In this document: positions 10,533 through 61,046 of the stretch, piece after piece
Numbering within the stretch: the stretch's first letter is position 1
Layout of the letters: each line of letters opens with the position of its first letter
DNA from: Mycobacterium sp.
GTDB taxonomy: Bacteria > Actinomycetota > Actinomycetes > Mycobacteriales > Mycobacteriaceae
Length of the DNA stretch: 64,000 bases
Assembly (NCBI GenBank): GCA_020438865.1
Contig: JAGQTU010000006.1
Coordinates: 1-64,000 of the forward strand
Direction: 5' to 3'
Notes under the pieces: model-generated
The model's database searches: none
What the model was told of the DNA's origin: nothing
Seen by the model: only the letters and a program-made list of their open reading frames with translations
Translations under genes and position numbers: made by a program

Positions 10533-10617
10533 GCCACTCCTTTCACGAATTAGAGGACGTGCTTTGAGACCACGGTAGCACCAAATTGGCGTGCGCGTCA
10601 GATTGGGTTCAGCGGGG

Positions 10618-32261: not shown

Positions 32262-32654
32262 TCAAGGCGTCTCGAGGATGGCCACCGCGGCGGCGGTGTC
32301 ACCCTCGTGCGTCAGCGAGACGTGGATCTGCACGTCGGCCAGATGCTCGGCGATGGCGCCGGTCAGCCGGACCTTGGGCCGGCCCCACATGTCGGTGATC
32401 ACCTCGATGTCGCGGTGAATGCCCTCGGGCAGCACCGGGCGCTGCGCGAAACGGGAACCCGACCAGGCCTTGATCACGGCCTCCTTGGCGGCCCACCGCG
32501 CCGCCAGGTGCCGGGCGGCCACCGAGCTCTTGTCGGCGGCGTCGCGACGCTCGCCGGGGGTGAACGTCGCGGCGAACACCGTTCCCGGCTGGTCCACCTG
32601 CTCGGCGAAATCGGGAATGGAGACCACATCGATGCCCACGCCGACTATCGCCAC
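32262..32654 (-). CDS. acpS: holo-[acyl-carrier-protein] synthase
   Basis: A 130-residue phosphopantetheinyl transferase that transfers 4'-phosphopantetheine from CoA to the ACP domain of FAS-I and to AcpM. The motifs are GVGIDVVSIPDF (Mg2+-binding Asp) and RWAAKEAVIKAW (WxxKEAxxK). The GTG start at 32654 is only nine bases after the fas stop, so it is cotranscribed with its substrate gene, as in M. tuberculosis (Rv2523c-Rv2524c). Confidence 0.95.
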   Translation of the reverse strand: MAIVGVGIDVVSIPDFAEQVDQPGTVFAATFTPGERRDAADKSSVAARHLAARWAAKEAVIKAWSGSRFAQRPVLPEGIHRDIEVITDMWGRPKVRLTGAIAEHLADVQIHVSLTHEGDTAAAVAILETP

Positions 32655-35600
32655 GCCGGAACCCTAGCGCACGTAGGTATCACCGTCGCCAAGACGCGAC
32701 GCCGGGTCGAGCAGCATCGCCGCCTCCTGACGCTTCTCCGGCAGGTCGTGGTCGAACCGGCGATCGGCGGGCTTTTCGTACATCGGCCGCCCGCCGGCGA
32801 TGGCCGCGACCAGCCTGCGCTGTCCGGCCAGCACCCGCTCCCGGGCCCGCCGCGTGTAGTCGTCCCGCTCCTCGGCACCGAGTGCGGCCAGGAACGCCTG
32901 CGGATGCACCAGGGCGATCAGACCGGACACGTGGCCGAAGCCGAGGCTGGTCACCAGGCCCGCCTTGAGCGGGAACTTCCCGCCCAGCCGCAGGGTCTCG
33001 CGCGGCCAGACGAAGTGCGCCGAGGTGGCCAGTTCGTCGTCGACGCAGTCCAGGCTGCGGTTCGGCGGGATGACGCCGTCGCGCAGGATCTGGCACAGCC
33101 CCATCATCTGGAAGACCGCCGCCCCGCCCTTGGCGTGGCCGGTGAGGCTCTTCTGCGACACGATGAACAGCGGGGCCCCGGCCGAGCGGCCCATCGAGTC
33201 GGCCAGCCGCTCGTGCAACTCGGTCTCGTTGGGGTCGTTGGCCAGCGTCGAGGTGTCGTGCTTGGAGATCACCGCGATGTCGTCGGGTCCCACGCCCAGC
33301 TTGGCCAGCGAGCGGGCCAGCACCGAATCGCGCCCGCCGCGGCCGGCGCCCAGGGCACCGAGGCCCGGCGCCGGGATCGAGGTGTGCACACCGTCGGCGA
33401 AGCTCTGCGCGTATCCGACCACGGCCAGCACCGGCAGACCCATCTTCAGCGCCAGGTCGCCGCGAGCCAGCAGCACGGTGCCACCGCCCTGGGCCTCCAG
33501 GAAGCCCAGGCGTCGACGGTCGTTGGCGCGGGAGAACTTCGCGTCACTGATGCCCTTGGAGCGCATCATCTCGGTGTCGGCGGTGGCCGCCATGTCACCG
33601 AAGCCGATGACCGCCTCCAGCGTCAGGTCGTCGAACCCGCCGGCGACCACGAGCTCGGCCTTGCCGAGGCGGATCTTGTCCATCCCCTCCTCGACCGACA
33701 CCGCCGCGGTGGCGCACGCACCGACCGGGTGGATCATCGAGCCGTAGCTGCCGACGTAGGACTGGATCACATGTGCGGCAACGACGTTGGGCAGGACCTC
33801 CTGCAGGATGTCGTTCGGCTTGGCCACCCCCAGCAGGTTGCCGTGGTACATCGTCTGCATCGACGTCATGCCGCCCATGCCGGTGCCCTGGGTGCTGGCC
33901 ACCAGGCTCGGGTGCACCCAGCGCATCAACTCCTCCGGGGTGAAGCCCGAGGACAGGAACGCGTCGACGGTGGCGACGATGTTCCACAGCGCCACCCGGT
34001 CGATGGAGCCGGCCATGTCCGGGGTGATGCCCCAGACCGTCGGGTCGAAGCCGGTCGGGATCTGCGCACCCACCGTCCGCGACAGCTTGGTCTTGCGGGG
34101 GACGCGAATCTCGGTGCCCGCCTTGCGGATCACCTCCCAGTCCGCCGAGTCGGGAACCGGACGCGCGACGGTGTGTTCCGGATCGACCTCCACGAACGCG
34201 CGGGCCTCGGCCTCCGAGGACACCACGAAGGTGAAGTCCTTGTCGAGGAAGACACTGACCAGCAGCGGCGAGGCGTGATCCGCCCCGATGGCGCCGTCGT
34301 CGACGAACTCCCGGATGCCGCACCGCTCCACGACCACGTCGTGATACCGCTCGACCAGGTCCGCCTCGTCGACCAGCTCACCGCTGGCGGTGTCGTACCA
34401 CCCCGGCTTGGGATCGTCCTCCCACTTGATCAGGCCGGTGGTCCAGGCCAGTTCGAGCACGCCGGCGGCGGACAGTTCGTTGTCGACCTCCATCTCGAAG
34501 CGGGTGCGCGACGAGCCGTACGGACCGAGTTCGGCGCCACCGACGATGACCACCAGGTCGGCCGGGTCGACGTCGAGGTCGGCCCAGTCGGGCGCGGGAG
34601 CGGGCCGGTGGCCGCGCGGCGGGGACGGCAGCGCGGCGATGGTGCCTGCGGCCGGCGCGTCCCCGGCGGCCTCCGATTCACTGGTCATCTCCTCGCGGGC
34701 CTTGGCGGCCAGCTCGGCCATGTCGAGCTCGATGTCGCCGAGCCCGCCGGTCAGGTCCACCTTCAGCGGGGTGTGCGCGGCGGCGACCTTGGCCTCGACC
34801 GTGCACAGGTCGAGCAGCATCGCGGCCATCTCCGCCGTCGTGTAGGTGGTCACGCCGGCCTCTTCGACAGCACCGACGATGGCGTCGTTGTGGCCCATCA
34901 GGCCGGTGCCCTTGGTCCAACCGATCAGCGCGTGCGCGAAGCTGACCCGCTGCGCCCAGGAGGCCTCGGCGTTCCAGCGGTTGACCACCGCGTCGAGCGC
35001 GGACTTGGATTCGCCGTAGGCGCCGTCGCCGCCGAACATGCCGCGGTTCGGCGAACCGGGCAGCACCACATGCAGCCGTGAGGCGATGTCGCGTTCGGCG
35101 CCGATCGACGACAGCCCGCCGACCAGTCGCTCGACCGCCCACAGCAGGACCTTCATCTCCATCTCGGAGCGCGAGCCGGCCTCCGACATGTCACCGGCCA
35201 CCCGCGGTGCGGCGAACGGGAACAGCAGCGTGGGCGTCTGCGCGTCCTTGATGTGAATCGATTGCGGCCCAAGGCTTTCCGACTGTTCGCTGCCGACCCA
35301 GGACACCAACGCGTCGATGTCGGCGTAGGAGGCCATGTTGGCCGGGACCACCCACAGCGCCGCGCCGTAGCGGGCGTGATCGCGGTAAAGCGACTTGTAG
35401 AAGTCCAGCCGGTCGTCGTCGAGCCGAGACGTCGTGGCGATCACCGTCGCGCCCCCGTCGAGCAGCTGGCCGACCACCGATGCCGCGATCGACCCCTTCG
35501 ACGCGCCGGTGACGACGGCCACCTCGTCGGAATAGCGCCCGGTTCCCGGGTTTTCGGCACCGGCGGCGATCCGCCCGAACAGCGAGGCGTGGATGGTCCG

Positions 35601-37970
35601 ACCGGCCGCCAGGGCCTTGCCCTGCCACCAGGTGGCCTGGGTGGCCACGGTGTGGCCGGCGCCCTCGAAGCGCTCCGAGAGCCGCACCCAGTCGGCGTCG
35701 ACGTCACCCTCGTCGGCCAGCCACAGCTTGACCAGATCCTCGCGCGCACTGGCCCAACGGTCGTCGAGCAGCACCGCCTTGCGCCCGTCGAAGGACGGGG
35801 CAACCAGTCGCGGCCAGTCCGAGCCCAGCTCGGCGGTCACCAGGTCGATCAGCTCGGCGTCGGTGGCCGCCGGCTGCGCGGTCTCCGGATTGTCCAGGCC
35901 GAGCTGGCCCAGCACCATCCGGGCCGCCGTGGCCAGCACACCGTCGCGACCGGTCACCTTCTCGGCGAACTCGCCTAGGGCGGCCGAGTCGACCACACCG
36001 CCACCGCCACCGCCGGCCGACGGGAGCGCGACGGCGATGCCCTTGCGGGCCGCCACCGAGGCGACCGCCGCGTCGATGGCCTTGTCCACGGCGGCGGCGT
36101 CGGCAAGCGCACCCTCGTGCAGCCCACCGAGGCTGCCGCCACGCACGCTGGCGCCCTCGCGGGTGCCCAGCGCGAGCTCGGCGGTGACGTGCTTGGCCCA
36201 GCCGTCTCCCAACTCCCAGGTCTTCTTGACCCGCTCGGCGATGGCGGCGGGCCGCTTGCCGGACGGGCCGAGCACGGTACGCAGCTGGTCGTTGATGGCG
36301 TCGGAGAGCACCGGACCGAACGGCTTGTAGGTCCGGGCGAGCTTGGACACCTGACCCTTCAGCGAGTTCAGGTCGGCCTCGGCGGCGCCGTCGATGGCGC
36401 CGAGGTTCAGCTCGGACCCGAGATCCACCAGCAGCTGGTTGCGCCGCGAGGACGCCCCGTCGGTGATCGACTCGATGGAGTCCAGCGGCTCGATCTGGTC
36501 GATGCGCATCTTGGCGCTCAACGCGATCAACGCCAGGGTGGCATCGCCGGCGTCGAAGACGATGTCCTCGGGGCGCGGAGCGCCGGCGGGCGCGACATTG
36601 GGCGACGGGCCACCGGTGGGGGCAGCGGCGGGAGCCGGTGCCGGTGCGGCCTCCGCCGCAGCGGGCGCTGCCTCGGCGGCGGGCGCCTCGGCGACCGGCT
36701 CGTCGTCCGGCTCCGGATCGGTGTCGGTCGCGAACAGCACCGCGGCGTCCCGCTCGGCGTTGAGCACTTCCACTGTGCTGTGGGCGTATTCGGGCAGCTT
36801 CAGGGTGTTACTCGCCAGGCCGGCGACGGTCGGTGCGGACTTCACCCCGATCTCCACGAAGCGCTCGACGCCCAGGCCGCCCGCGGCCTCCTCGATGAAC
36901 AGCAGGTCCTGGGTTTCGATCCAGCGCACCGGGCTGGCGAACTGCCAGGCCAGCAGTTCGATGACGACCTTGCGACACAACTCGTGCGGCTTCTCGTTGC
37001 GCCAGGTGTCGTAGTCGGCGAGCACCTCGTCGAGCGGTTCGGCGGGCACCAGGTCACGGATCTCCTGAATGAATTCGCGGTCCAGGGTGAACGGCCGGGG
37101 CACCAGGTTCGGGATGTAGCGCCCGATGATCAGGTTCGGGTCGGCGTCGCGGGGCATGACGCGGTCCAGCGAGCGGCGGAACTCGTCGACACCCACGCGC
37201 AGCACGCTGGAGTGGAACGGCACGTCGATACCGGGCACCAGGATGAAGGAGCGCTTGCCGCCGGAGATCTCGCGACGCCGCTCCACCTCCTCCTCGAGGG
37301 CCTCCAGGCCGCGCACAGTACCGGCGATCGCGTACTGCGAGCCGCGCAGGTTGAAGTTCACGATCTGCAGGAATTCCCCGGTGCGCTCGGAGATCTCGGC
37401 GACGAAGCCGGTGACCTCGGCGTCGGGCAGGTCGATCTGCGACGGGCGGATCGCGGCCAACCGGTAGTTGGACCGGCCCATCTCGTCACGGGGAACGATG
37501 TCGTGCATCTTGCTGCCGCGGTGGAACACCACCTCGAGCAGCGCCTCCAGCTCGTAGACCCCGGACACACACGCCAGGGCGGTGTACTCGCCCACGGAGT
37601 GGCCGCAGGCGATGGCGCCCTCGACGAAGGCGCCCTGCTCGCGCATCTCGGCGACCTGGGCGGCCGCCACGGTGGCCATCGCCACCTGGGTGAACTGCGT
37701 CAGGTACAGCACGCCCTCGGGGTGCTGGTAGTGCACGCCGCCGGCGATCAGGCTGGTCGGGTTGTCCCGCACCACGTGCAGCACCGAGAAGCCGAGGGTT
37801 TCGCGGGTGAACTTGTCGGCGGTGTCCCACACCTTGCGGGCCGCTTTGGAGCGGGCACGGACCTCCATGCCCATGCCCTTGTGCTGGATGCCCTGGCCGG
37901 GGAAGGCATAGACGGTCTTCGGCGCCGCCAGCCGGGCGGTGGCGCTCATCACCAGATCGGAGCTCGCGCC

Positions 37971-38007
37971 ACTCCCCCCAGTCGCTTCGCTCCCGCCCCG
38001 CCGGGCC
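37971..38007. repeat. dispersed 37-bp repeat inserted in frame in fas (copy 1)
   Basis: This stretch resembles the tandem repeat units upstream of cmrA (shared core close to CGCTCCYGCCC and a GCCGRGCC end). On the fas strand it encodes a Gly/Ser/Arg-rich insert (ARRGGSEATGGSGA) between the dehydratase and the malonyl/palmitoyl transferase. I do not recall this insert in other mycobacterial FAS-I. Confidence 0.55.
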
Positions 38008-39041
38008 TTGGCGGTGACCTCCAAAACCTCTGCGCCGAGATCGATTCCGACCCGGTCGACCCGGAAGTCGATCTCGTCACCCGGCTTGACCATGCCCAGG
38101 AAGCGGGCGGTCCAGCCGAGCAGCTTGGCGGGTGGGACCGGCCTGCCGTCGGTGGCGGTGACGACGTGCTGGGCCGCGGCCGACAGCCACATCCCGTGCA
38201 CGATCGGCGAATCCAGGCCCGCCAGCAGGGCGGCAGCCTGATCGGTGTGGATCGGGTTGTGGTCACCGGAGACCACCGCGAACGGCCGCATGTCGACCGG
38301 CGCGGTGATGGTGACGTCGCGGCGGCGCCGGCGCGGGGTGTCGGTGGCGTTCTCCGACACCGCTCCCCCGGCGCGAACCGGGTCGGTCAGTTCGACCGAG
38401 CCGGTGCGGCCGCGGATCGCGAATCGCTCCTCGAGGACCGCCAGGATGATGCCGTTCGCGTCGGTCACGTTCACGGTGACCGGAACGACGCGGCCGACCT
38501 CGGTGTCGGTGGCGACCGAAGCCGTTGCGGTTACCCGCAATTGGGTCTTGTCCTTGGGCAGCGGCTTGAGCAGCTGCGCGGCGTGGTCAAGGTGCACCAG
38601 GCTGAGCAGGCCCTCGACGACCGGGAATCCGGTGTCGGTGACCGCGCCGCCGATCGCGGCGAACACCGCGGGCCAGCAGCGGCCGACCAGGGCATCCGGA
38701 ACGATGGAAAGGGTTGGGGCCAGCGGTGATCCGAACGTGGCCGTCACACCGGTGTGGTCGGCGACCCGCTCGGGGTCCCACTCCACGGTGACGGTGGTGG
38801 AGCCGCCCGTCACGGGGGGCAGCGCGGCGGGTCCGTCGACCCCGGCGGCGATGGCCAGCACCGCACGCATCGCGGCGGCCGCGTCCTCGGTGCGGACCAC
38901 CGGCGCTCCGCCGTCGACGACGGTGGCCGGCAGCGTGAAGGCGATGTCGATCCAGGTGCCCGACAGCGGGACGCTCAGCACGACCCGGTCGGGAGCGGTG
39001 ACTTCCAGGCGGGCGCCGGTGGAATGATTTGTCGCGCTGCC

Positions 39042-39076
39042 GAATTCCCGGTTCGCTTCGCCCCTGCCCTCCGAAC
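39042..39076. repeat. dispersed 37-bp repeat inserted in frame in fas (copy 2)
   Basis: A more diverged relative of the same unit, with core GGTTCGCTTCGCCCCTGCCC. On the fas strand it encodes NRSEGRGEANREFGSA, a charged insert in the region between the enoyl reductase and dehydratase domains. Confidence 0.5.
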
Positions 39077-39819
39077 GGTTGTCGTGCACCAGCCACTCCG
39101 ACGGCGCGGCGATGCGGTGCACCGGGTTGGTGGCGGTGCGACCGGCCCACAACACGTCCGGAGAGTCCAGCACGATCGCCAGCGGGCCGGTCGCATCGGT
39201 ACGAACCTGCAACCGGGAGGCGACCGGCGTGGGAGCGGAGCCCGCGGCCAGCGCCTGGTCGACGGCAGCCTTCTCGAAGCGGTCGAGCAGGTCGCCCACC
39301 GGCTCGTCGACCCGCGTGATGCCGGCGACCGCCGCCGTGCCGGGGATGACGCAGACCTGATCGGCGCTGTAGCGCGCGTCGTGGGCCTGCCACAGCGAGT
39401 CGCTGCGCCACCAGCGGCGGACATCCTTGTCGATCACCGGGACGAAGTTGACCGGCTTGCCCAGCGTCTTGCACAGCTCGATGAAGAACGGCACATCGGC
39501 CGGGTGCAGCACGACCGCCGCGGCGTCGGGATATTCGGCCAGCAGCGCGGCGATCGCCTGATCGGGGTTCTCCAGCAGCCGGTCACCGTCGGCCGATTCG
39601 GCGTCGAACCGGGTCTCGATCGGGCCGACGTCGGCCGGGTTCAACCGGGCCTCCGCGCGCTGCAGCATCGCGGCGAACCGGTCGCGCCAGCTGATGTCCA
39701 GCCACGGTGAGCCCTCGGCCTTGGTGTCGGCGGTGCTGTCGCCGTCGCCGATCGCCAGCTCGACGTAGCGCTGCAGCCACTGCAGGTAGGTCATCTCCGC
39801 GACGTCACCGAAGTACGGC

Positions 39820-39836
39820 TTGGCGGTCGGCGCCGA
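39820..39836 (-). other. fas frameshift/deletion junction
   Basis: On the coding strand GGCGCCGAC (end of SQLGAD) runs straight into CGCCAAGCCG (TAKP in the other frame). The trinucleotide GAC at the join would serve both sides, as expected for a microhomology deletion whose length is not a multiple of three. Confidence 0.7.
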
Positions 39837-42154
39837 GCTGGCTGCGCCCGGATGCCATGCCGCCCTGGGCCGTTCCGGCCCCGACCCACTGGTCGGTGCC
39901 GGCGGTCTCGACGAGTAACTGCTTGACGGCCGGTGATGTGGTGGCCTCCAGGCAGGCCATCGCCGCCGTGCCGACCAGGATGCCGTCAACCGGCATCTGC
40001 GGGTAGCCGTACGCCTCCGACCAGCGGCCGGACAGATACTCGGCGGCCCGCTCAGGGGTGCCGATGCCGCCACCGACGCAGACCGTGATATTCGATCGCG
40101 ACCGCAGTTCCGAGTAGGTGCTCAGCAGCAGGTCGTCGAGGTCCTCCCAGGAGTGGTGGCCACCGGCGCGGCCGCCCTCGATGTGGGCGATGACCGGCTT
40201 GGTGGGCACCTCGGCGGCGATCCGGATGACCGACCGGATCTGCTCGACGGTGCCGGGTTTGAAGCAGACGTGGGCGATGCCGATGCCGTTGAGCTCGTCG
40301 ATCAGCGCGACTGCTTCCTCGAGTTCGGGGATCCCCGCGCTGACCACCACACCGTCGATCGGCGCGCCCGACTGCCGGGCCTTCTGTACCAGGCGCTTAC
40401 CGCCCAGCTGCAGCTTCCACAGGTAGGGGTCCAGGAACAGCGAGTTGAACTGGATGGCACGGCCCGGCTCGAGCAGGTTCTCCAGCTCGGCTATGCGCTT
40501 GTCGAAGATCGCCTCGGTGACCTGTCCGCCGCCGGCCAGCTCGGCCCAGTGGCCGGCGTTGGCCGCCGCGGCGACGATCTTGGCGTCGACGGTGGTGGGG
40601 GTCATGCCGGCCAGCAGGATCGGCGACCGGCCGGTGAGGCGGGTGAACTTCGTCGACAGCTTCACCGAGCCGTCGGGCAGGGTGACGACCGACGGCGCGT
40701 AGCTCGACCACGGCCGGGCCACCTCGGGCACCGCCCCGACGGTGAACAGGTTGCGCTGACCACCGCGGGTGGCGGCCGGCACGATCCCGATGCCCAGGCC
40801 ACGGATGACCGGCGCGGTGAGGCGGGTCAGGATGTCGCCCGGGCCCAGATCGAGAATCCAGCGGGCGCCGGCGTCGTGCAGGGCGGTCACCTCGTCGACC
40901 CAGTCCACCTGCTTGACCAGGATGGCCTCGGTCATGGCCCGGGCCAGTTCCACGTCCAGCCCGACCGCCTCGGCCCAGCGCCCCACGATGTCGATGCCGT
41001 CGGCCAGCCGGGGGGTGTGGAACCCGACCTCGACCGCGACCGGGTCGAACACCGGGCTGAACACCGCACCGCCGCGCACCTTGCTCTTGCGCTCGGCGGC
41101 CTCGGCCTCGGCGATCTGCTCGCAGTACAGCTCGAATCGGGACAGCTGTTCGGGGGTACCGGTGATGACCACCGAGCGGCGGCCGTTGCGGATCGACAGC
41201 ACCGGCGGCAGCACGGTGCGGACGTCCTTGGCGAACTCCTGGAGCAGCTCGTAGATGCGCTCGGGCTCAGCGTTGGTGACCGAAACCATGGGCGGGCGGT
41301 CGCCGAGCACCGAAATGCCGCGGCGGCGAGCCACCAGGGTGCCGGCGGCCCCGATCAGCTGGGCGAGGGCCAGCAGCTGGACGTCCTCGGCGCCACCGGC
41401 CCGCAGGGCCTCGACGGCCAGCACACCCTGGGAGTGGCCGGCCACGGCCACCGGCGGGGTGGCGGTCAGATCCATGCCCTGGCGGGCCAGGGCGCGGATG
41501 GCGGCGATCTGGGTGAGCAGCACACCGGGCACCGACACCGCGGCCGAGGTCAGCTGTTTGGCCGACGGCACCGGCTCCTCGGCAGCCAGCAGGCGAACCC
41601 AGCGCAGCGGCTCGAAGCCGATGGGACGGACCACGACCAGTTCCTTGGCCACCGGCTCGAGCAGCAGCTCGGCCTCACCGGCCAGCGTCGCCAGCTCCGA
41701 TTCGATACCGGCCGAGGTCACCAGCTCCTCGAGGGTCTCCAGCCACGCGCTGCCCTGCCCGCCGAAGGCAACGGCATACGGTTCACCAGCATTGAGACGG
41801 TCGACCAGCGCGTGGGTGGTGCTCTGCGGGGCATCACCCCGTTCCGAGCCCCGTCCCGACCCGTCGCCCGTGGACAGCCTGTCGTGCTCGTGGATCGTCA
41901 CCTTGTCTAACTCCCTCGATACTTCTTCATCGCGTCGTCTGTCGGCTTCACTCGGACCTACGTTGCCCCGGCGGAGGTATTCGGCGATTCCTGAGTCGAA
42001 TCACGGACGGGCCGGGTGGACCCGTCCTGGGCCGGTGCAATCCGGGGCGTCCCTCACGGGGAAGGGCCTGGCGGAAAACTCGGCTGCAGTAAGAGTCTCA
42101 TAAGAAGAGGGTGCGATTTTTCGGCCATATCGGTTACTGACGAGTTCTACGCGC

Positions 42155-49188: not shown

Positions 49189-49419
49189 ATGACCAGTGAG
49201 ATCCAGCGCATCGTGATCTCGGCCGCCCTCGGCGCCGGCGACGGGGCGCCGCCGTTGCACGTCGAACTCGAACCCACCGGCGGTCCGTTCAACCGGCTGT
49301 TCGGCCGCAGTACCCCGGCGCGCACCCGGGTCGCCAACGCCGCCCTGGCGATGCGGGACAAGGTGCCCACGCCGGCGATGCGGGTGGCGATGAAGGTGCT
49401 GCAACCACCGCGCGGCTGA
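49189..49419 (+). CDS. small protein of unknown function
   Basis: A 76-residue protein starting MTSEIQRIVISAALGAGDG and ending RVAMKVLQPPRG. The central region is NRLFGRSTPARTRVANAALAMRD. Third codon positions are almost all G or C, as in its neighbours. No signal peptide, helix or known motif is visible. It lies alone between the ChaB gene and the P-type ATPase and converges with the latter, 11 bp apart. I do not recognise it. Confidence 0.6.
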   Translation: MTSEIQRIVISAALGAGDGAPPLHVELEPTGGPFNRLFGRSTPARTRVANAALAMRDKVPTPAMRVAMKVLQPPRG

Positions 49420-49430
49420 GCTGGGACGCC

Positions 49431-52037
49431 CTACCGCGGCAATCGGCCGCCGTGGCTGAATCGCGCTGCCCGCCGGTGGATTCGGTGCTCGACCCCGCGG
49501 CTGCGCTCGGCGGGGACCATCCGCACCGGCTCGGCGTAGAACACCACCTTGGTGATCTCCACCAGCACCAGGTAGGCCACCACGAACAGGGCCAGCGCCC
49601 CGAAGAACTGCCACGGCAGCGCCGTGAAGCCCAGCGCGTGCGCCAACGGTGACACGGTCAGGGCAATCCCAATCACGATGACCGTGCAGGTGGTCAGCAC
49701 CAGCCAGCCCCCCGGGCGGCTGCGCAGGAACGGGATTCGCCGCGTGCGGATCGCGAAGATGATCAGCGTCTGGGTGGCCAGCGACTCGACGAACCAGCCG
49801 GTGCGGAACTCGACCGGGCCGGCGTGCAGCACGCCGAGCATCAGCCCGAACGTCAGGAAGTCGAACAGCGAGCTGATCGGACCGAAGGTCAGCATGAAGC
49901 GGCGGATGAACGCGATGTTCCAATGCGACGGTGCGTGCAACTGCTCGTCGTCGACCCGGTCGGTCGGGATGGCCAATTGCGAGGTGTCGTAGAGCAGGTT
50001 GTTCAGCAGGATCTGGCTCGGCAGCATGGGCAGGAAGGTCAGCACCGCCGAGGCGGCCGCCGCGGAGAACATGTTGCCGAAGTTGCTCGACGTGCCCATC
50101 AGCACGTACTTGATGGTGTTGGCAAAGATCCGGCGACCCTCGGCGACGCCGGTGGCGAGCACCCCGAGGTCCTTCTCCAGCAGCACCACGTCGGCGGCGT
50201 CCTTGGCCACGTCGGTGGCGGTGTCCACCGAGATGCCGACATCGGCCGAGTGCAGCGCCAGCGCGTCGTTGACCCCATCGCCGAGGAAGCCCACCGAGCG
50301 TCCGGTGCGGCGCAGCACGCTGATCAGCCGCGCCTTCTGTTCCGGCGAGATCCGGGCGAACACCGTTGATTCGCGCGCCGCCGCCTCGAATCCCGCATCG
50401 CCCAGCCCGTCGAGCTGCGCCCCGGTCACAATGCCGCGGGAGACCAATCCCAAATCAGCGCAGACCTTTTCGGCAACCGCCGCGTTGTCGCCGGTCGCGA
50501 CCTTCACCTCGATACCCAGGCCGGCCAGCTCCGCCAACGACGCCCGGGCGGCCTGCTTGGGCGGGTCGGCGAACACCAGGAAGCCGTCCAGTCGCAGGCC
50601 GGTCTCGTCGGCGGGGTCGATGGCGGTCAACTCCGGGGCGGGCCTGCTCGCCACCGCCACCACCCGGCGGCCGTCGGCGAACAGCCGATCCAGAACCGCG
50701 GTCTGCGGCACCTCGACGCAGTGCTCGATCACCTGTTCGGGGGCGCCCTTCACGATGAGCACCCGGCCGTGCGCATCGTCGACGAGCGCCGAGCACGCCC
50801 GCCGCTGGTGGTCGAAGGGCAGTTCGCCGATCCGGCGCGCACCCGCCGTGACCATCCGGCGCCCGGCATCGGAATCCCACAGCGCGGCGTCCATCTCGTT
50901 GGCGCTGGTTCCCCCGATGCGCGGATCGACATCGGTGGCCAACAGCCCGGTGCGCAGAACCCATTCCGAGGGCGCACCCGACGGGTCGATCGCCTCGACG
51001 AGGGTGATTCGGCCCTCGGTCAGGGTGCCCGTCTTGTCGGTGATCAGGATGTCGATGTCGCCCAGGTCCTCGATGCACACCAACCGCTTGACCAGAACCT
51101 TGAGGTTGGCCAACCGCCGTGATCCGGTGGCGAGGCTGGTGCTGACCACCGCGGGCAGCAGTTGCGGGGTGATGCCGACCGCGATCGCCAGCGCGAACAG
51201 CACCGAGTCGATCACCGGGCGGCGCAGCAACAGGTTGGTGACCAGGATCAGCACGGTCAGCGTCATCGCCACCTGCAGCAGCAGATAGGAGAAGCGGCGC
51301 AACCCGACCTGGAAGTCGGTCTCGGGTTGGCGCTCTCCCAAACCCGCGGCGATCCTGCCGAACTGCGCGCTGAGCCCGGTGGCGTAGACGACGGCGGTGG
51401 CATCACCGGCACTGACTACGGTCCCCATGAACGCCAGGTCGTCGGCGTCGGCGAGGTCCACGCCGTTCCGCGCCGGAGCCGCCGATTTCTCGGTGGCGGT
51501 GGACTCCCCGGTCAGGATGCTCTCGTTGCATTCCAGGCCGTTCACGGTGATCAGCCGCACGTCGGCGGGAACCAGTTCACCCAGGGTCAGTTGGATGACG
51601 TCGCCCGGAACCAGCGCGTTGACGTCGAGTTTGACGTAGCGCCCGTCGCGGCGGGCAAGGGCAGTGTGCCGCACCCTCGAATGCAGTGCGGCGCTGGCCC
51701 GTTCGGCCCGGTACTCGTTGAGGAATCCGAGGCCGATGCTGACCACCAGGATGATGCCGATGATGACGGCCTGGGTGGCGTCGCCGAGGAAGAACGACAC
51801 CACCGCGGTCACCGCCAGCAGGATCAGCACCGCGTTGTTGAGCTGCCGGCGTAGCACCCCCCAGGCGCTGACCCGATGGGTGCGAAGCGAATTCGGTCCC
51901 ACGCGGGCCAGCCGGGCGGCCGCCTCCGCGCTCGTCAGCCCGCCGGTGGTGGTCTCCAGCCGCCCCAGGACGTCGGCCAGTGGCGCGGCGGCGACGACGG
52001 GGACGGTCAGCGCACGGTCATCCTCGATCGCCGTCAC
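49431..52037 (-). CDS. MgtA-like cation-transporting P-type ATPase
   Basis: An 868-residue P-type ATPase: actuator motif LTGEST, phosphorylation site DKTGTLTEG, hinge GDGVNDA, and about ten membrane helices. The helix-4 sequence GITPQLLPAVVSTSLA and the VKRLVCIEDLGDIDILITDKTG segment are like magnesium-type (MgtA) pumps. M. tuberculosis has a DosR-controlled pump (CtpF) in its dormancy regulon, and this gene may play that part. The GTG at 52037 overlaps the end of the PEP synthase gene by 20 bp. An upstream in-frame extension to 52190 lies inside that gene and is rejected. Confidence 0.88.
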   Translation of the reverse strand: MTAIEDDRALTVPVVAAAPLADVLGRLETTTGGLTSAEAAARLARVGPNSLRTHRVSAWGVLRRQLNNAVLILLAVTAVVSFFLGDATQAVIIGIILVVSIGLGFLNEYRAERASAALHSRVRHTALARRDGRYVKLDVNALVPGDVIQLTLGELVPADVRLITVNGLECNESILTGESTATEKSAAPARNGVDLADADDLAFMGTVVSAGDATAVVYATGLSAQFGRIAAGLGERQPETDFQVGLRRFSYLLLQVAMTLTVLILVTNLLLRRPVIDSVLFALAIAVGITPQLLPAVVSTSLATGSRRLANLKVLVKRLVCIEDLGDIDILITDKTGTLTEGRITLVEAIDPSGAPSEWVLRTGLLATDVDPRIGGTSANEMDAALWDSDAGRRMVTAGARRIGELPFDHQRRACSALVDDAHGRVLIVKGAPEQVIEHCVEVPQTAVLDRLFADGRRVVAVASRPAPELTAIDPADETGLRLDGFLVFADPPKQAARASLAELAGLGIEVKVATGDNAAVAEKVCADLGLVSRGIVTGAQLDGLGDAGFEAAARESTVFARISPEQKARLISVLRRTGRSVGFLGDGVNDALALHSADVGISVDTATDVAKDAADVVLLEKDLGVLATGVAEGRRIFANTIKYVLMGTSSNFGNMFSAAAASAVLTFLPMLPSQILLNNLLYDTSQLAIPTDRVDDEQLHAPSHWNIAFIRRFMLTFGPISSLFDFLTFGLMLGVLHAGPVEFRTGWFVESLATQTLIIFAIRTRRIPFLRSRPGGWLVLTTCTVIVIGIALTVSPLAHALGFTALPWQFFGALALFVVAYLVLVEITKVVFYAEPVRMVPAERSRGVEHRIHRRAARFSHGGRLPR

Positions 52038-54303
52038 GGCCCCGCGCCGACTCGAGCAGCAGCCGCCGCTCGGCAGCGGCCACGTTGCGCCGGGTCTTCT
52101 GAGCGACGTCCGGCGTGACCGAGATCGACGTGATGCCCATCCGCACAAGGTGTTCGGCGAAGTCCGGCCGGCTCGACGGTGCCTGACCACACAGCGAGGC
52201 GGTGATGCCCAGCCTGCGGGCGGTGCCGATGATCCGGCCGATAGCGTCGAGCACCGCGCCGTCGGATTCGTCGTACAGTTCGGCGCACAGGTCGGAGTCG
52301 CGGTCGACGCCCAGCGTCAGCTGAGTCAGGTCGTTGCTGCCGATCGACACCCCGTCGATGCCCATGCCGACGTACTCGGGCAGCCAGTACGCCACCGAGG
52401 GCACCTCGGCCATCACCCAGCGGTGCAGGCCGCGCTGACGGCCCAGTGGGCTGGCGTCGACCAACTCGAGGCACTTCTCCAGCTCCCACTTGGTCCGGAC
52501 GAACGGGATCATCAAGTGCAGGTTGGGATTCTGCTCGCGAACCCGGGCCAGCGCCCGCAACTCCAGATCGAACAGGTCCGGGTTACTGACATACCGATAG
52601 CAGCCGCGATAGCCGATCATCGGGTTGTGCTCTTCGGGCTCGTACTTGTCGCCGCCCTTGAGGTTGCGGAACTCGTTGGTGCGGAAGTCCGAGGCCCGAT
52701 AGACCACCGGGCGCGGGGCGAACGCGGCGGCCACCCGGCCGACGGCGGTGGCCAGCGAGTCGACCAGGCTCTCCTGCTCACCGTGCTCGATCAGGTCGCG
52801 GGGATGCCGGTTATTCAGGGCGTCCTCGAGGATCAGCTCGGCGCGCAGCAGGCCCACCCCGTCGACGTCGAGAGCGGCGGCCTGCTCGGCCTTGTCCGGC
52901 ATCGCCACGTTGACGTAGATCTTGGTGGCGGTGACCTCGCTGGCGGGGGCGGCCACGACCGCCGTCACGACCGACTCGGTCTGCGCACCACCGACGGCCC
53001 GGCCGGCCAGCACGCGGCCGTGGGTGCCGTCGACGGTGACCACGGTCCCGTCCTTGAGATCCTTGGTGGCGGTGCGGGCGCCGACGATGCAGGGTACGCC
53101 GAGTTCGCGGGCGACGATGGCGGCGTGACAGGTCATGCCGCCGCTGTCGGTCACCAGCGCCGACGCCCGGCGCATGGTGGGCAGCCAGTCGGGGTTGGTC
53201 ATCTGCGCCACCAGCACCTCGCCGTCCTGCAACCGGGCGCCGTCCTTGACGTCGGCGAGTACCCGGACCACACCGGAGGCCTCGCCGGGCACCGCGGGCA
53301 AGCCCTGCAGCAGCACCTCATGGGTCTCCGGCACCGGCTTGCCGACGCGGTGCAGGGTGGTGATCGGGCGGGTCTGCACGATGTAGGTCTTGCCACCGGC
53401 GATCGCCCATTCGGTGTCCTGCGGGCAGCCCGAGTGCCGCTCGCTGCGCACCGCGATATCGGCGATGGTGCGCACCTCGTCGTCGTTGAGCACCTGGGCC
53501 TCGGCCTCGGCCGGGCTGAGATCGACATTCTGGTCGCTGCCGTCGGCGCCGCGGACGATCTTGAACTGCTTGAAACCGATTCGGCGGGAGATGATCTCGC
53601 CGGTCTCCTTGGACACCACATAGGTGTCGGGCTCAACCGACCCGGACACCACCACCTCACCCTGGCCGAACGCACCCTCCACGACCACCCGGTCGGTGGC
53701 GTCGGTGGTGGGGTCGGCGGTGAAGGCGACACCGGAGCGCTCGGAGGCGATCATCTGTTGGACCACCACCGCCATCGCCGGGTCCGCGGTGAACCCGCGG
53801 CTGGCCCGGTAGGCGACCACCCGGGCCCCGAACAGTGAGGCCCAGCAGCGCTGTACCGCGTCGATCAACTCGTCCTCACCGGAGATGTTGGTGAAGGTGG
53901 AGTTCATCCCCGCGAACGAGGCGTCGGCACCGTCCTCACCGGTAGCCGAAGAGCGCACGGCCACAATCACATTCGGGCCCATAGTCCGGTAGGACGACAG
54001 GATCCGCTCGCGCACGTCGTCGGACATCCCGGCTTTCAGCACCAGAGCCTGCATCTTCTCGCACATCTCGGTGAACCGATCCTGGTCGGCGACGCTGCGC
54101 ATGGCATCGCGGTGCGCGGCATTGAGCTCGTCGGCCACCCCCGCGTCGCGCATGGCGGCCAGGTAGCTGTCACGCAGCACAACGAACCCGAGCGGGACCG
54201 GAAGGCCGGCGGCCACCATCTCCCCCATGTTGGCGCCCTTGCCGCCGGCCTCCTCGGCGTCGGCCATTCTCAGGTTGGCAATGTCTTCGACGAATCTCGG
54301 CAT
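52018..54303 (-). CDS. ppsA: phosphoenolpyruvate synthase (pyruvate, water dikinase)
   Basis: A 761-residue enzyme with an N-terminal ATP-binding domain (GGKGANMGEM, AVRSSATGEDG), the phosphohistidine domain (GGMTCHAAIVARELG) and a C-terminal PEP/pyruvate barrel (VSIGSNDLTQLTLGVDRDS). It converts pyruvate and ATP to PEP, AMP and phosphate, favouring gluconeogenesis. GAGGAG seven bases before the ATG at 54303 supports the start. It is in one minus-strand unit with the kinase-like gene upstream (41-bp gap) and the P-type ATPase downstream, apparently under a DosR box. Confidence 0.92.
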   Translation of the reverse strand: MPRFVEDIANLRMADAEEAGGKGANMGEMVAAGLPVPLGFVVLRDSYLAAMRDAGVADELNAAHRDAMRSVADQDRFTEMCEKMQALVLKAGMSDDVRERILSSYRTMGPNVIVAVRSSATGEDGADASFAGMNSTFTNISGEDELIDAVQRCWASLFGARVVAYRASRGFTADPAMAVVVQQMIASERSGVAFTADPTTDATDRVVVEGAFGQGEVVVSGSVEPDTYVVSKETGEIISRRIGFKQFKIVRGADGSDQNVDLSPAEAEAQVLNDDEVRTIADIAVRSERHSGCPQDTEWAIAGGKTYIVQTRPITTLHRVGKPVPETHEVLLQGLPAVPGEASGVVRVLADVKDGARLQDGEVLVAQMTNPDWLPTMRRASALVTDSGGMTCHAAIVARELGVPCIVGARTATKDLKDGTVVTVDGTHGRVLAGRAVGGAQTESVVTAVVAAPASEVTATKIYVNVAMPDKAEQAAALDVDGVGLLRAELILEDALNNRHPRDLIEHGEQESLVDSLATAVGRVAAAFAPRPVVYRASDFRTNEFRNLKGGDKYEPEEHNPMIGYRGCYRYVSNPDLFDLELRALARVREQNPNLHLMIPFVRTKWELEKCLELVDASPLGRQRGLHRWVMAEVPSVAYWLPEYVGMGIDGVSIGSNDLTQLTLGVDRDSDLCAELYDESDGAVLDAIGRIIGTARRLGITASLCGQAPSSRPDFAEHLVRMGITSISVTPDVAQKTRRNVAAAERRLLLESARGRDGDRG

Positions 54304-54344
54304 CGGGGCTCTCCTCTGGTGGATGTTCGGGGTCGGGGTCGGTT

Positions 54345-55805
54345 TCAGATGGCCAGGCAGCAGATCTCGGTCGCCTCGGTGATCGACTCGGCCAGCGGTC
54401 TGCTGGTGTCGATCCGGTGCGCGCCCCGCCAGGGCGGCTCGTCCCGGTCAGCGAGGGCGGTGGCGATCTCCGGTGTCACCTGGGAGGTGGTCTCGGTGCG
54501 AGCCCGGATCCGCGCCACGCTGGCGTCCAGCGGCGCGGTGCAGGCGAACTGCAACAGCACCGCCGAGACGTCCTCGGCCAGCCGGCGGGCGGCGTCGCGG
54601 TGCCCGCCGTCGCGCCAGGTGCCGTCCAGGATCACGCTGCGGCCCTCGCACAGGCCCAGGTGCGCGCGGCGCAGCACCGCGTCGTAGACGGCGTCGACGT
54701 TGGCCGCGGCGTACAGGCCCTCGTCGAGCGTTCCGGGCGTTCCGGTGAGCTCACCGCGGCGAACCAGCTCGGCGCGCACGTCGTCGGTGGAGACGACTTC
54801 GGCACCGACGCGTTCGGCCAGCGACCGCGCCAGCGTGGTCTTGCCGGTGCCGGGACCGCCGCCGACCAGGATCAGCCGGACCGCCCCGGACCGCAGGTGC
54901 CGGCGCGCGATGTCCAGGTGAGCGTGGGCATCGGCGGCCGCCTCGGCATGGCCCTGGGTGTAGCGGACGCAGTCGACCTTCGCGCGCACCACCGCGCGGT
55001 AGGCGATGTAGAAGTCACGCAGCGAGGCCGGGGCGGCGTCACCGGACAGCCGGGCGTACTCCTGCAGGAAGAACCGCCCCAGGTCGGGGCGGCCGAGGAA
55101 GTCGAGATCCATCGCCAGGAACGCGGCATCGTCGACGACGTCCACGTAGCGCAGCCGGTCGTCGAACTCCAGGCAGTCCAGCAGCGCCGGGCCGTCGTCG
55201 AGGCAGAAGATGTCATCGGCCAGCAGGTCGGCGTGGCCGTCCACGATCTTGTGCTCGGCGATGCGCCGGGCGAACAGCACCGCGCGCCCGGCGACGAAGT
55301 CGGTTGCCAGCCTGGCGGTTTCGGCGACCGCATCCGGGTCGAGGCCCGGGACGACGCCGTCCGCATACCGCTCGAGTTCGGCGAGGTTCTCCGCCCAGCG
55401 TGCGGTGATCGCATCCACCCGCGCCTCGGCGTCCACCTCTCGCCCCCGCACGGCCGAGGCGTGGAAGCGGGTCAGCACCAGGGCGATGGTGCTCAGTTCC
55501 GGCTCGACGGAGTCGCCGCGGCGGACCATGGTGGCCAGCCGGCGCTCGTCGGGGTGGCGGCGCATGACGAGGACGGGCTCACCCTGACCGCCCCCGGGCG
55601 GGTTGAAGTGACCGATGCCCAGGTAGCTGTCGGGGGCCAGCCGGCTGTTGAGCTCCAGCTCGTGGGCGCAGGCCCGCTCCCGGCTGTCGAGGGTGCTGAA
55701 GTCGAGGAAATCGGTGACCACCGGCTTCTTCACCTTGTAGGCCCGGTCGCCGATGAGAAACACCATCCCGGTGTGCGTCTCGGCGGTCAGCGGACCCTGC
55801 TGCAT
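54345..55805 (-). CDS. fused aminoglycoside-phosphotransferase-like and P-loop kinase protein (Rv2004c family)
   Basis: A 486-residue, two-domain protein. The N-terminal part (to about residue 300) is phosphotransferase-like (KVKKPVVTDFLDFST; HADLLADDIF and CLEFDDRLRYVDVVDD in place of the catalytic loops). The C-terminal part is a P-loop kinase (GGGPGTGKTTLARSLA, about residues 325-340). M. tuberculosis Rv2004c, a DosR regulon member, has this layout; substrates are unknown. The ATG at 55805 directly follows GGAGGT, which is too close to be an ideal site. A DosR-like box lies 56 bp upstream, and ppsA follows. Confidence 0.85.
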   Translation of the reverse strand: MQQGPLTAETHTGMVFLIGDRAYKVKKPVVTDFLDFSTLDSRERACAHELELNSRLAPDSYLGIGHFNPPGGGQGEPVLVMRRHPDERRLATMVRRGDSVEPELSTIALVLTRFHASAVRGREVDAEARVDAITARWAENLAELERYADGVVPGLDPDAVAETARLATDFVAGRAVLFARRIAEHKIVDGHADLLADDIFCLDDGPALLDCLEFDDRLRYVDVVDDAAFLAMDLDFLGRPDLGRFFLQEYARLSGDAAPASLRDFYIAYRAVVRAKVDCVRYTQGHAEAAADAHAHLDIARRHLRSGAVRLILVGGGPGTGKTTLARSLAERVGAEVVSTDDVRAELVRRGELTGTPGTLDEGLYAAANVDAVYDAVLRRAHLGLCEGRSVILDGTWRDGGHRDAARRLAEDVSAVLLQFACTAPLDASVARIRARTETTSQVTPEIATALADRDEPPWRGAHRIDTSRPLAESITEATEICCLAI

Positions 55806-55860
55806 ACCTCCGATCCTTGCCGTGCCGCTCGGCCGACACAGCGGTACTACGGCCACTAGG

Positions 55861-55880
55861 GCCGGGTGCAAGGTCCCCAC
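55861..55880 (-). promoter_or_regulatory. DosR-box-like site for the Rv2004c-like/ppsA/P-ATPase unit
   Basis: Read on the minus strand, GTGGGGACCTTGCACCCGGC keeps GGGAC and CCC in the register of the DosR consensus (TTSGGGACTWWAGTCCCSAA). Its centre is 65.5 bp before the start codon. No clean -10 is seen at the expected distance, so support is weaker than for the other sites. Confidence 0.55.
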
Positions 55881-55900
55881 CACCGAGGGCACAAAGGCCT

Positions 55901-55982
55901 TTAGCGGCCGTTAGCGGCCGTTAGCGGCATTTAGCGGCCTTTCGGCCGCGGCGGCCGTCGGCGGCCCTTTCGGCCGCGGCGG
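55901..55982. repeat. tandem 10-bp and 16-bp repeats between divergent DosR-type promoters
   Basis: Four consecutive units of TTAGCGGCNN (55901-55940) are followed by CTTTCGGCCGCGGCGG at 55939-55954 and again at 55967-55982. The DNA between also repeats GGCGGCC. The block fills the space between the two opposite DosR-like boxes and can form GC-rich structure. Confidence 0.85.
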
Positions 55983-55988
55983 GCGCGC

Positions 55989-56008
55989 AAGGTGACTTCT
56001 GACCCCTG
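55989..56008 (+). promoter_or_regulatory. DosR-box-like site at -42.5 of the nitroreductase gene
   Basis: AAGGTGACTTCTGACCCCTG resembles the DosR consensus. TAGGGT at 56029-56034 is a TANNNT -10 that sets the RNA start at 56041, the A of the ATG (leaderless). The box centre (55998.5) is exactly 42.5 bp upstream. Confidence 0.68.
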
Positions 56009-56040
56009 GCGTCACGGCGGCGGCGTTCTAGGGTTGAGTC

Positions 56041-57024
56041 ATGACCGGAGCGGTGCCTGATCCCCAGCTGATGGCGAATGCGGTGGAGTTGGCCTGCCGG
56101 GCCCCGTCGGTGCACAACAGCCAACCGTGGCACTGGATCGCGGAGGGCCTGCAGCTGAAACTGTTCTTCGAGCCGCACCGGGTTCCGCACGCCACCGACA
56201 TCACCGGCCGGGAGGCGGTGATCAGCTGCGGAGCGGTGCTCGACCACCTGCGGGTCGCCATGGCGGCGGCCGGCTGGCACGCCGAGATCTCCCACTTCCC
56301 CAACCCCAACGACCTCGACCACCTGGCGACCGTCGACTTCACCCCGATCGAGTTCGTCACCGACGCCCATCGCGCCCGTGCCGACGCGATCCTGCGGCGC
56401 CGCACCGATCGGCTGCCGTTCGCACCGCCGCCGAACTGGGCGGAATTCGAACCCGCGTTGCGCAGCACCGTCGACACCGAGTTGGCGGTCCTGCATGTGC
56501 TGCCCGACAGTGCGCGGTCCCAGCTGGCCGAGGCCTCCCGGCTCACCGAGTCGCTACGCCGCTACGACTCCCACTACCACGCCGAATTGGAATGGTGGAC
56601 AGCACCTTTCGAAGTTTCCGACGGCGTCCCCTACAGCACCCTGGTCTCGCCGGGAGAACGCGAACGGGTGGAGGTCGCCCGCGCCTTCCCCGCCGGGGAG
56701 CATCCCGACCGCCGGCCGGAGGTCGACCACGACCAGTCGAAGATCCTGGCGCTGTCCACCTATTCCGACAGCCGACGCGATGCGCTGGGCTGCGGCGAGG
56801 TGCTCTCCAACGTGTTGCTCGAGGCGACCATGGCCGGGTTGGCCACCTGCACCCTGAGTCACCTCACCGAACTGGAGGCCAGCCGCGCGATCCTACGCGC
56901 ACTGATCGGCGGCTCCGACGACCCGCAACTGCTCATCAGGATCGGTGTGGTGCCCGCGCTGGGCGAGGTGCCGCCGGCCACCCCGCGCCGGCCGCTGTCG
57001 GACGTGCTGGAGATCCGCGGCTGA
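56041..57024 (+). CDS. Acg family FMN nitroreductase-like protein
   Basis: A 327-residue protein of the Acg/Rv3127/Rv3131 type, a mycobacterial nitroreductase-fold family strongly induced in dormancy. The start (ACRAPSVHNSQPWHW) holds the conserved PSVHNSQPW motif, and the second nitroreductase half includes GEVLSNVLLEATMAGLATCTLSHLTE. Some Acg proteins keep FMN behind a lid and may store flavin rather than reduce nitro compounds. It is controlled by the DosR-like box just upstream. Confidence 0.9.
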   Translation: MTGAVPDPQLMANAVELACRAPSVHNSQPWHWIAEGLQLKLFFEPHRVPHATDITGREAVISCGAVLDHLRVAMAAAGWHAEISHFPNPNDLDHLATVDFTPIEFVTDAHRARADAILRRRTDRLPFAPPPNWAEFEPALRSTVDTELAVLHVLPDSARSQLAEASRLTESLRRYDSHYHAELEWWTAPFEVSDGVPYSTLVSPGERERVEVARAFPAGEHPDRRPEVDHDQSKILALSTYSDSRRDALGCGEVLSNVLLEATMAGLATCTLSHLTELEASRAILRALIGGSDDPQLLIRIGVVPALGEVPPATPRRPLSDVLEIRG

Positions 57025-57027
57025 CGC

Positions 57028-57684
57028 TCATTCCGGCGGCGAATCCTTCGCCGTGGACTGCCAGGCCGCCTCGGCGCGCCGCTTGATGCCCAACAGCATC
57101 CCGCGGGTCATCAGCGCGGTCACCGGTCCGGCCAGTTCGGCGCCCACCACCTCACCCGGCAGCCGCATCCGCGACCGACTGCGCACGAGCAGCCGGCAGC
57201 GGTCCTCCCAACGCGGCTGCACGTGGAACGACCAGACCCCGTCGAACGGGAACTTCGGCGGGGTCTGGCGAAGCACGATCGACTGGCCCTCGATCAGTTG
57301 GGCGACCGGCAGGGACATCCCGTCGCTAAGCCCCAACCAACCGCGGGGCACCAGCCGGACGACGTCGCCGACGGCCAGCTGCTGCCATTCGGGATGAATC
57401 CGGTCAGCGTTGCGGTACTGCAGTCCGATCAGGTTCTCCAGCGACTCGTAGCTGTAGAGCCCGCCGCGATCCTGGCCCATCTGCACCAGCCAGGGCCAGA
57501 CCGCACTGGCCGGGGCGTCGATCCAGACCCCCTCGGTGGTCTGCACGGCAGGCCCGCCGACGAGTTCGTCACCGGGAAGCGGTGTTTCGCACTCTTCCTT
57601 GGTCGTCCCCCAGTTCCGGTAGAAGCGTCTCGCCGCGTACAACCCGGCGCCGGCCACCGCCGCACCCGCCACGTTCTTCCACAT
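57028..57684 (-). CDS. SRPBCC-like protein with N-terminal membrane segment
   Basis: A 218-residue protein. The N-terminus (MWKNVAGAAVAGAGLYAARRFYRNWG) forms a short hydrophobic anchor. The rest resembles an SRPBCC/START-type cavity protein (TTEGVWIDAPASAVWPWLVQMGQDRGGLYSYESLENLIGL). The ligand is unknown. The ATG at 57684 is favoured over the GTG at 57702 because a DosR-like box is centred exactly 42.5 bp upstream of it, as in a leaderless DosR promoter. It converges with the nitroreductase gene. Confidence 0.75.
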   Translation of the reverse strand: MWKNVAGAAVAGAGLYAARRFYRNWGTTKEECETPLPGDELVGGPAVQTTEGVWIDAPASAVWPWLVQMGQDRGGLYSYESLENLIGLQYRNADRIHPEWQQLAVGDVVRLVPRGWLGLSDGMSLPVAQLIEGQSIVLRQTPPKFPFDGVWSFHVQPRWEDRCRLLVRSRSRMRLPGEVVGAELAGPVTALMTRGMLLGIKRRAEAAWQSTAKDSPPE

Positions 57685-57716
57685 GCCGCCAGTGTTCCCC
57701 ACCCGCGCCGCGCTGC

Positions 57717-57736
57717 GTAGGGTCTGTGGTCCCCGA
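57717..57736 (-). promoter_or_regulatory. DosR-box-like site at -42.5 of the SRPBCC gene
   Basis: GTAGGGTCTGTGGTCCCCGA (plus strand) matches the near-palindromic consensus at about 14 of 20 positions. Its centre (57726.5) is 42.5 bp from the ATG at 57684. The -10 candidate on the minus strand (AACACT) is weak. Confidence 0.65.
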
Positions 57737-57764
57737 CCCGGTCGCCGGACGAACGGCCCGCATC

Positions 57765-57784
57765 GACAGGACTTCGGTCCCTAC
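57765..57784 (+). promoter_or_regulatory. DosR-box-like site for the PRT-esterase/pfkB unit
   Basis: GACAGGACTTCGGTCCCTAC has the best inner half-sites (GGAC and GTCC). At -42.5 it predicts an RNA start at 57817 with TCGGAT as the -10, leaving a 62-nt leader with GAGGGGG before the ATG. Confidence 0.65.
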
Positions 57785-57878
57785 CGGTATCGATGCCCGA
57801 GTGGTCGGATTGCGCTTGACGACGTCTGTTGCCTGCCCGCCGACCCGGGCAGACGCCAGATCTTGAGGGGGCAGCGAG

Positions 57879-59918: not shown

Positions 59919-59948
59919 AGAAGGGTCGAAGAACTTGGAGTCGCACCG

Positions 59949-60923: not shown

Positions 60924-60963
60924 GGCGGTGGCCGCGGGTGGATCACCGACCTTTTCCCGCCCA

Positions 60964-60983
60964 CCGGGGACTTTCTGCCCTCC
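60964..60983 (+). promoter_or_regulatory. DosR-box-like site and promoter of the USP-devR-devS unit
   Basis: CCGGGGACTTTCTGCCCTCC fits the DosR consensus (GGGAC, TTT, CCC). Its centre (60973.5) is 42.5 bp upstream of 61016. TAACGT at 61004-61009 is a TANNNT -10 exactly at -12 to -7 of that base. The leader is 31 nt with GGGGAG before the ATG. Confidence 0.75.
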
Positions 60984-61046
60984 GAGTCGCAGCGCCGCGG
61001 GATTAACGTCGGCAGAATAGGAACCTCACCTCTCGGGGAGTTCAAC

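What the first reader, a model, noticed from the sequence alone, without database searches (positions are those of the whole stretch)
39805..39840. Essential FAS-I gene split by a frameshifting deletion
The reading frame leaves the enoyl-reductase end at SQLGAD, stops at 39805, and resumes in another frame at TAKPYFGDV. Compared with mycobacterial FAS-I as I remember it, roughly three dozen residues are missing, with a GAC microhomology at the join. FAS-I is considered essential, so the options are a sequencing or assembly collapse, a mixed population, programmed frameshifting, or a truly split synthase.
Basis: partly seen in the sequence, partly recalled or inferred. Interest (0 to 1): 0.72.

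Follow-up and report, generated by a model that had tools for sequence, protein, structure and literature searches.

The report
Fatty-acid synthase broken in draft genome
In this draft genome of a mycobacterium the single gene found for an essential fatty-acid factory lacks 116 bases that its relatives keep, which most likely reflects an error or a stray variant in the sequence data rather than a new kind of split enzyme.

Summary
The fas (FAS-I) gene on the minus strand is broken by one 116-base deletion, joined at 39825/39826, with a TGA at 39807-39805. In 109 of 109 relative loci (98 distinct) there are exactly 116 more bases there, and all 98 stay open through the site. The lost stretch (38 residues, 26 invariant in 15 relatives) lies in the enoyl-reductase/helical region. 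It is the only fas found in a 366-contig, 90.9%-complete draft, and no second allele was found, though part of the sampled short contigs was masked. Both sides are about as constrained as in intact relatives (dN/dS 0.038 and 0.118 against a ~5%-divergent sister), so it is not an old pseudogene. None of the other 395 genus genomes searched shows this join. Published passages report FAS-I essential in M. smegmatis and not rescued by added fatty acids. Best explanation: a spurious deletion from assembly or library, or a rare variant molecule taken into the consensus, in a gene that is intact in the living population. A real deletion in part of the population is the main rival. Programmed frameshifting is rejected; a functional split synthase is unlikely but not excluded. 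Without reads this cannot be settled.

The parts
39805..41901 (-). ORF A, 698 aa: N-terminal FAS-I part (acetyltransferase region and first part of the enoyl-reductase/helical region); FAS-I sequence down to 39826
   Evidence: SAT, FAS_AT_central, PF08354 positions 1-127; aligns to M. smegmatis FAS residues 1-695
32664..40073 (-). ORF B, 2469 aa as listed; FAS-I sequence only from about 39825 down: rest of the helical region, dehydratase, malonyl/palmitoyl transferase, ACP, ketoacyl-synthase domains
   Evidence: (PF08354 positions 174-353, MaoC, Acyl_transf_1, ACP, ketoacyl-synt)
39825..39826 (-). join: 116 bases present in relatives are absent between these two bases
39805..39807 (-). TGA stop that ends ORF A after the frame change
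39792..39794 (-). ATG in the ORF B frame, 10 bases after the TGA; possible restart, function not shown
   Evidence: translation from here starts MTYLQW, aligned to M. smegmatis residue 744
32262..32654 (-). acpS (phosphopantetheinyl transferase), the usual downstream partner of fas, with an open frame
   Evidence: 95% identical to the G024 gene; PF01648

Best explanation
The deposited sequence carries a spurious 116-base deletion in an otherwise normal, single-copy, essential fas gene. Two places 116 bases apart were joined, either when the draft was assembled or gap-closed, or in a chimeric or rare variant DNA molecule that the consensus adopted. In the living population the gene is most likely continuous and works as ordinary mycobacterial FAS-I. 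Shown: the deletion in the assembly, its exact size against relatives, the frameshift, one copy found, intact gene context and purifying selection on both sides. Inferred: that the deletion is absent from most of the living population, and how it arose.
For: 109 of 109 relative loci have 116 more bases and 98 of 98 distinct ones are open there. The lost residues are as conserved as their surroundings (26 of 38 columns invariant; 63 of 100 before, 45 of 100 after). dN/dS against L037 is 0.038 for piece A and 0.118 for the tail of piece B, close to intact pairs (0.037 and 0.108 for G024 with G053), so no long time without function. No other fas or PF08354 copy. No other of 395 genus genomes carries the join: 16 pattern hits, 16 of 16 intact. 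Essentiality and failure of added fatty acids to rescue in M. smegmatis (PMC5356441, passages; the paper marks the latter 'data not shown'). The draft is in 366 contigs with 4.2% contamination. Broken fas frames occur in 2 of 51 assessable relatives' genomes as well.
Against: The sampled part of this assembly shows no excess of broken genes: 7 of 218 rows (6 places) against 7 of 208 in the reverse control. The join is clean and both sides belong to the same species, as a real deletion would look. No second allele was found, though part of the short contigs was masked. The shared bases at the ends are few, so a repeat-driven assembly collapse is not shown. Ratios against more distant relatives (A 0.092-0.105, B 0.134-0.144) are modestly above intact pairs (A 0.037-0.048, B 0.088-0.108). 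I saw no reads.
Confidence: 0.6

Rival explanations
1. A real deletion (for instance by slipped mispairing) present in part of the sampled population, in a mixed culture or community; the assembler followed the deleted form while intact cells sustain the lineage.
For: Clean single event in one species context; no general excess of broken genes in the assembly; selection on both sides like that of intact genes, as expected for a very recent event.
Against: No intact second allele found among the contigs (masked short contigs limit this); an essential-gene null should not be the major form.
Confidence: 0.22
2. A real, fixed and recent loss of FAS-I, with the cell living on outside or stored lipids.
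For: The join is in the assembly and no other fas copy was found. PMC5541348 (passages) says that in an M. smegmatis FAS I knock-down mycolic acids were still made, from stored triacylglyceride.
Against: In M. smegmatis added palmitic and/or oleic acid did not restore growth (PMC5356441, passages). The gene shows purifying selection and otherwise intact frames, and acpS is intact.
Confidence: 0.09
3. A functional two-chain FAS-I: ORF A and a second chain restarted at the ATG 10 bases after the TGA, assembling like the split fungal synthases.
For: In-frame ATG just after the stop. Fungal FAS is split at various sites, generally within domains, and engineered tripartite yeast FAS still assembled (PMC6972935, passages).
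Against: 38 conserved residues are missing, not just a cut. Nothing like it in 98 distinct relatives or in 395 other genus genomes searched for this join.
Confidence: 0.05
4. Programmed +1 frameshifting joins the two frames.
For: The frames overlap for 269 bases at a +1 offset.
Against: 98 of 98 distinct relatives need no shift; the frame change is fully accounted for by missing DNA; a shift would still leave 38 conserved residues out. Stimulating elements were not tested for.
Confidence: 0.01

Closest known systems
Mycobacterial type I fatty acid synthase (M. smegmatis FAS, PDB 4v8v/4v8l; M. tuberculosis FAS-I, PDB 6gjc)
   Same: Sequence and domain order over both ORFs, followed by acpS
   Different: Reading frame broken; residues corresponding to about 695-732 of the M. 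smegmatis enzyme missing
Two-gene fungal FAS (Ascomycota, Tremellomycetes and Rhodosporidium types)
   Same: One synthase spread over two reading frames, cut inside a domain region (PMC6972935, passages)
   Different: Fungal splits characterise whole lineages; this break is seen in one draft genome and removes conserved residues
Broken fas frames in other deposited mycobacterial genomes (G009, G045)
   Same: Single interruption in an otherwise full-length fas
   Different: Small frameshift or one in-frame stop at other places, not a 116-base deletion; cause not tested

Membership tests
Mycobacterial FAS-I | Domain order acetyltransferase, enoyl reductase, dehydratase, malonyl/palmitoyl transferase, ACP, ketoreductase, ketosynthase | tested here: met
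   Pfam hits in order over the two ORFs. No Pfam hit for the ketoreductase; only a weak NCBIfam oxidoreductase match below its cut-off at ORF B 1514-1606
Mycobacterial FAS-I | One continuous reading frame of about 3,070-3,180 codons | tested here: not met
   Two frames; 49 of 51 assessable same-genus genomes have one frame of 3,074 aa or more
Mycobacterial FAS-I | Followed by acpS | tested here: met
   ACPS domain protein at 32262-32654, same strand
Programmed ribosomal frameshifting | Frame change conserved in relatives | tested here: not met
   98 of 98 distinct relatives open in one frame through the site
Programmed ribosomal frameshifting | Slippery site and stimulating signal | not tested
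   No dedicated search was made
Split (two-chain) type I FAS | Split conserved in a lineage without loss of conserved domain sequence | tested here: not met
   Seen in one genome only of 396 searched for this join; 38 conserved residues missing
Split (two-chain) type I FAS | Two stable chains assembling into an active complex | not testable with these tools
   Needs proteomics or biochemistry
Old pseudogene | Relaxed selection and further disruptions | tested here: not met
   dN/dS 0.038 and 0.118 against L037; two otherwise open frames cover the rest of the gene. Modestly raised ratios against more distant relatives

The most novel reading that the evidence does not exclude
A mycobacterium that lives with a two-chain FAS-I: an acetyltransferase/partial enoyl-reductase chain and a second chain restarted at the ATG 10 bases after the TGA, with the enoyl-reductase step either tolerating the loss of 38 residues or taken over by another reductase. 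It would be a bacterial counterpart of the split fungal synthases; I recall no such case, and searches are the only looks at print for it.
Probability: 0.05. Interest if true: 0.75.

Novelty: not a real feature. Interest (0 to 1): 0.15.

Why it matters
If the deletion were real and fixed, an enzyme reported as essential and pursued as a drug target would be dispensable or splittable in a mycobacterium. As it stands the case is a warning: an essential gene can read as broken in a draft whose sampled part shows no excess of broken genes, and 2 of 51 assessable relatives also show a broken fas frame.

Tried and rejected
Second fas copy to compensate: none found. Intact second allele among the contigs: none found, but ten of the twenty scattered contigs sampled came back masked, so this is incomplete. 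Between-species chimera at the join: identity to L037 falls just right of the join, which first looked like a chimeric junction, but one search shows that L037 carries the odd block (best match L087, 85%), while the window block matches the usual clade. Repeat at the ends: I suspected a perfect 9-base repeat. In the 16 loci the two 9-base stretches differ at 1-2 positions, but those 16 were picked because their right flank fits the join pattern; the commonest right flank among relatives is less alike. A perfect repeat in this lineage is not shown. DNA folding as a cause: L037's stretch folds no better than shuffles (z 0.61); one search lists only short repeats. Other frame changes on the contig as signs of poor assembly: the one near 62.6 kb lies at the boundary of a response regulator and a kinase with their own domains; those near 81.5 and 89.8 kb have one weakly conserved side and were not resolved. 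dN/dS of piece B against L037 as a whole (0.216) includes L037's divergent block; the tail without it gives 0.118. Structure of the region from L039 with 14 relatives: mean pLDDT 45.8, not usable, no fold search made (collected the same answer). Promoter/terminator scan: none found. PHROGs: no hit for ORF A. Paper searches on amplification chimeras and on assembly frameshifts gave no papers; the listings were not opened.

Full report
WHAT IS THERE. The window is the first 64 kb of contig C333 (103,508 bases) of a 4.96 Mb, 366-contig draft, 90.9% complete and 4.2% contaminated (identity of window and contig start checked). Its nearest named relatives are Mycobacterium/Mycolicibacterium records; the closest is a MAG called Mycobacterium sp. 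HKST-UBA43 (L037). The fas gene lies on the minus strand. ORF A runs 41901-39805 (698 aa) and ORF B 40073-32664 (2469 aa) in the +1 frame. ORF A carries SAT, FAS_AT_central and the first 127 of 353 positions of PF08354; ORF B carries positions 174-353 of PF08354, then MaoC, Acyl_transf_1, ACP and ketoacyl-synthase domains; the ketoreductase gave no Pfam hit. Against M. smegmatis FAS, ORF A aligns to residues 1-695, and the ORF B piece from the Met at 39794 starts at 744. acpS follows with an open frame.

THE DELETION. Blastn of the site against 29 relatives showed the same interruption in each. Over all 109 relative loci fetched by then the gap is 116 bases in 109 of 109; removing duplicates leaves 98, and all 98 are open in the ORF A frame through the site. 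The 80 named loci among them are the best 80 of 574 that one search confirmed. L037 is intact there. The lost 38 residues are as conserved as their neighbours: 26 of 38 columns invariant in 15 relatives against 63 of 100 before and 45 of 100 after. At the two breakpoints 93 of 109 relatives share 2 bases, 13 share 3, two share 4, one none.

COPY NUMBER AND ALLELES. A search of the whole own genome with 1267 residues of ORF B finds one fas; five other hits have 41% identity or less. PF08354 finds only the two halves. A search with the intact L037 stretch finds the two flanks at C333 and, beyond them, only short matches with E of 0.00175 or more. Ten of twenty scattered contigs sampled were masked, so a second allele could be missed.

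IS IT AN OLD PSEUDOGENE? No. Against L037 piece A has dN/dS 0.038 over 692 codons and the tail of piece B 0.118 over 394 codons; the intact pair G024 and G053 gives 0.037 and 0.108. Against more distant relatives the ratios are modestly above intact pairs (A 0.092-0.105 versus 0.037-0.048; B 0.134-0.144 versus 0.088-0.108), a weak point against this reading.

IS IT A CHIMERA OF TWO SPECIES? Identity to L037 is 96.1% in the kilobase before the join, falls to 72-85% in the four 200-column blocks that follow the block holding the join, and returns to 94-97%. The odd block belongs to L037, whose best match there is L087 (85%), while the window block matches the usual clade (86% to L040). So both sides of the window's join look like one species.

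IS THE ASSEMBLY GENERALLY BAD? I compared 871,293 sampled bases of the own genome (about 9 kb masked) with 1.04 Mb of G004, whose main contig is a single 5.97 Mb sequence. Of 218 G004 genes with a good match, 7 rows (6 places) change frame on the own genome; of 208 own genes, 7 change frame on G004. With at least 80% identity on both sides there is one in the own genome (fas) and two in G004. A smaller first comparison with G024 genes gave 2 split of 42 matched on this contig, against 1 of 77 in G004 and 2 of 32 in G053. The sampled assembly thus shows no excess; this weakens 'sloppy assembly' but not a single local error.

HOW OFTEN IS FAS BROKEN IN DEPOSITED GENOMES? Of 59 other same-genus genomes, 57 have a fas match; 49 have one frame of 3,074 aa or more, 6 are cut by contig ends, and 2 are broken at other places, both on single-contig chromosomes: G009 by a small frameshift and G045 by one in-frame stop. 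Whether those are errors was not tested.

IS THE JOIN SEEN ELSEWHERE? A degenerate pattern of the join was sought in 396 genus genomes: own plus 16 others match, and 16 of 16 others are open genes whose right flank happens to fit the pattern. The pattern would miss other deletion alleles.

BIOLOGY. In M. smegmatis a fas conditional mutant stops growing, and palmitic and/or oleic acid did not restore it ('data not shown'; PMC5356441, passages read). PMC5541348 (passages) repeats the essentiality and says mycolic acids were still made, from stored triacylglyceride. The M. tuberculosis FAS-I structure paper calls it essential (PMC6155276, passages). A fixed loss is therefore improbable. A split synthase has fungal precedent, with natural splits generally inside domains and an engineered tripartite yeast FAS (PMC6972935, passages), and an ATG in the ORF B frame lies 10 bases after the TGA, but the loss of conserved residues speaks against it.

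VERDICT. Observation confirmed. Spurious deletion or rare variant taken into the consensus 0.60; real deletion in part of the population 0.22; real fixed loss 0.09; functional split 0.05; programmed frameshift 0.01; the rest is left for causes not thought of. Reads decide.

Noticed in passing
L037:~10222-10866: The sister MAG HKST-UBA43 carries a divergent block in fas that best matches L087 (85%), amid about 95% identity to the window: recombination or a chimeric MAG contig.
   Followed up: partly
window 37964-38005: An in-frame net 39-base extra stretch in fas, between the dehydratase and the next transferase domain, absent from 8 of 8 relatives aligned; reads as a linker.
   Followed up: no
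L235 (G009) and L236 (G045): Two relatives' fas genes on single-contig chromosomes are broken: a small frameshift and one in-frame stop.
   Followed up: partly
window 49193-61030: A block with no alignment over 300 bases to the fetched syntenic stretches of G024, G004 or G053. It codes for a cation-transport ATPase, a pyruvate phosphate dikinase-like protein, an AAA-domain protein and a phosphoribosyltransferase/erythromycin-esterase-domain fusion, next to a response regulator and GAF-histidine kinase; from memory this resembles the dormancy (DosR) regulon.
   Followed up: partly
L071 (CAMCWJ010000077.1): A record titled Bifidobacterium breve MAG holds a mycobacterial fas, 85% identical to ORF A: probably a mislabelled or contaminated bin.
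   Followed up: no
contig C333 near 81.5 kb and 89.8 kb (outside the window): Two further frame changes relative to G024/G004 genes, each with one weakly conserved side.
   Followed up: no
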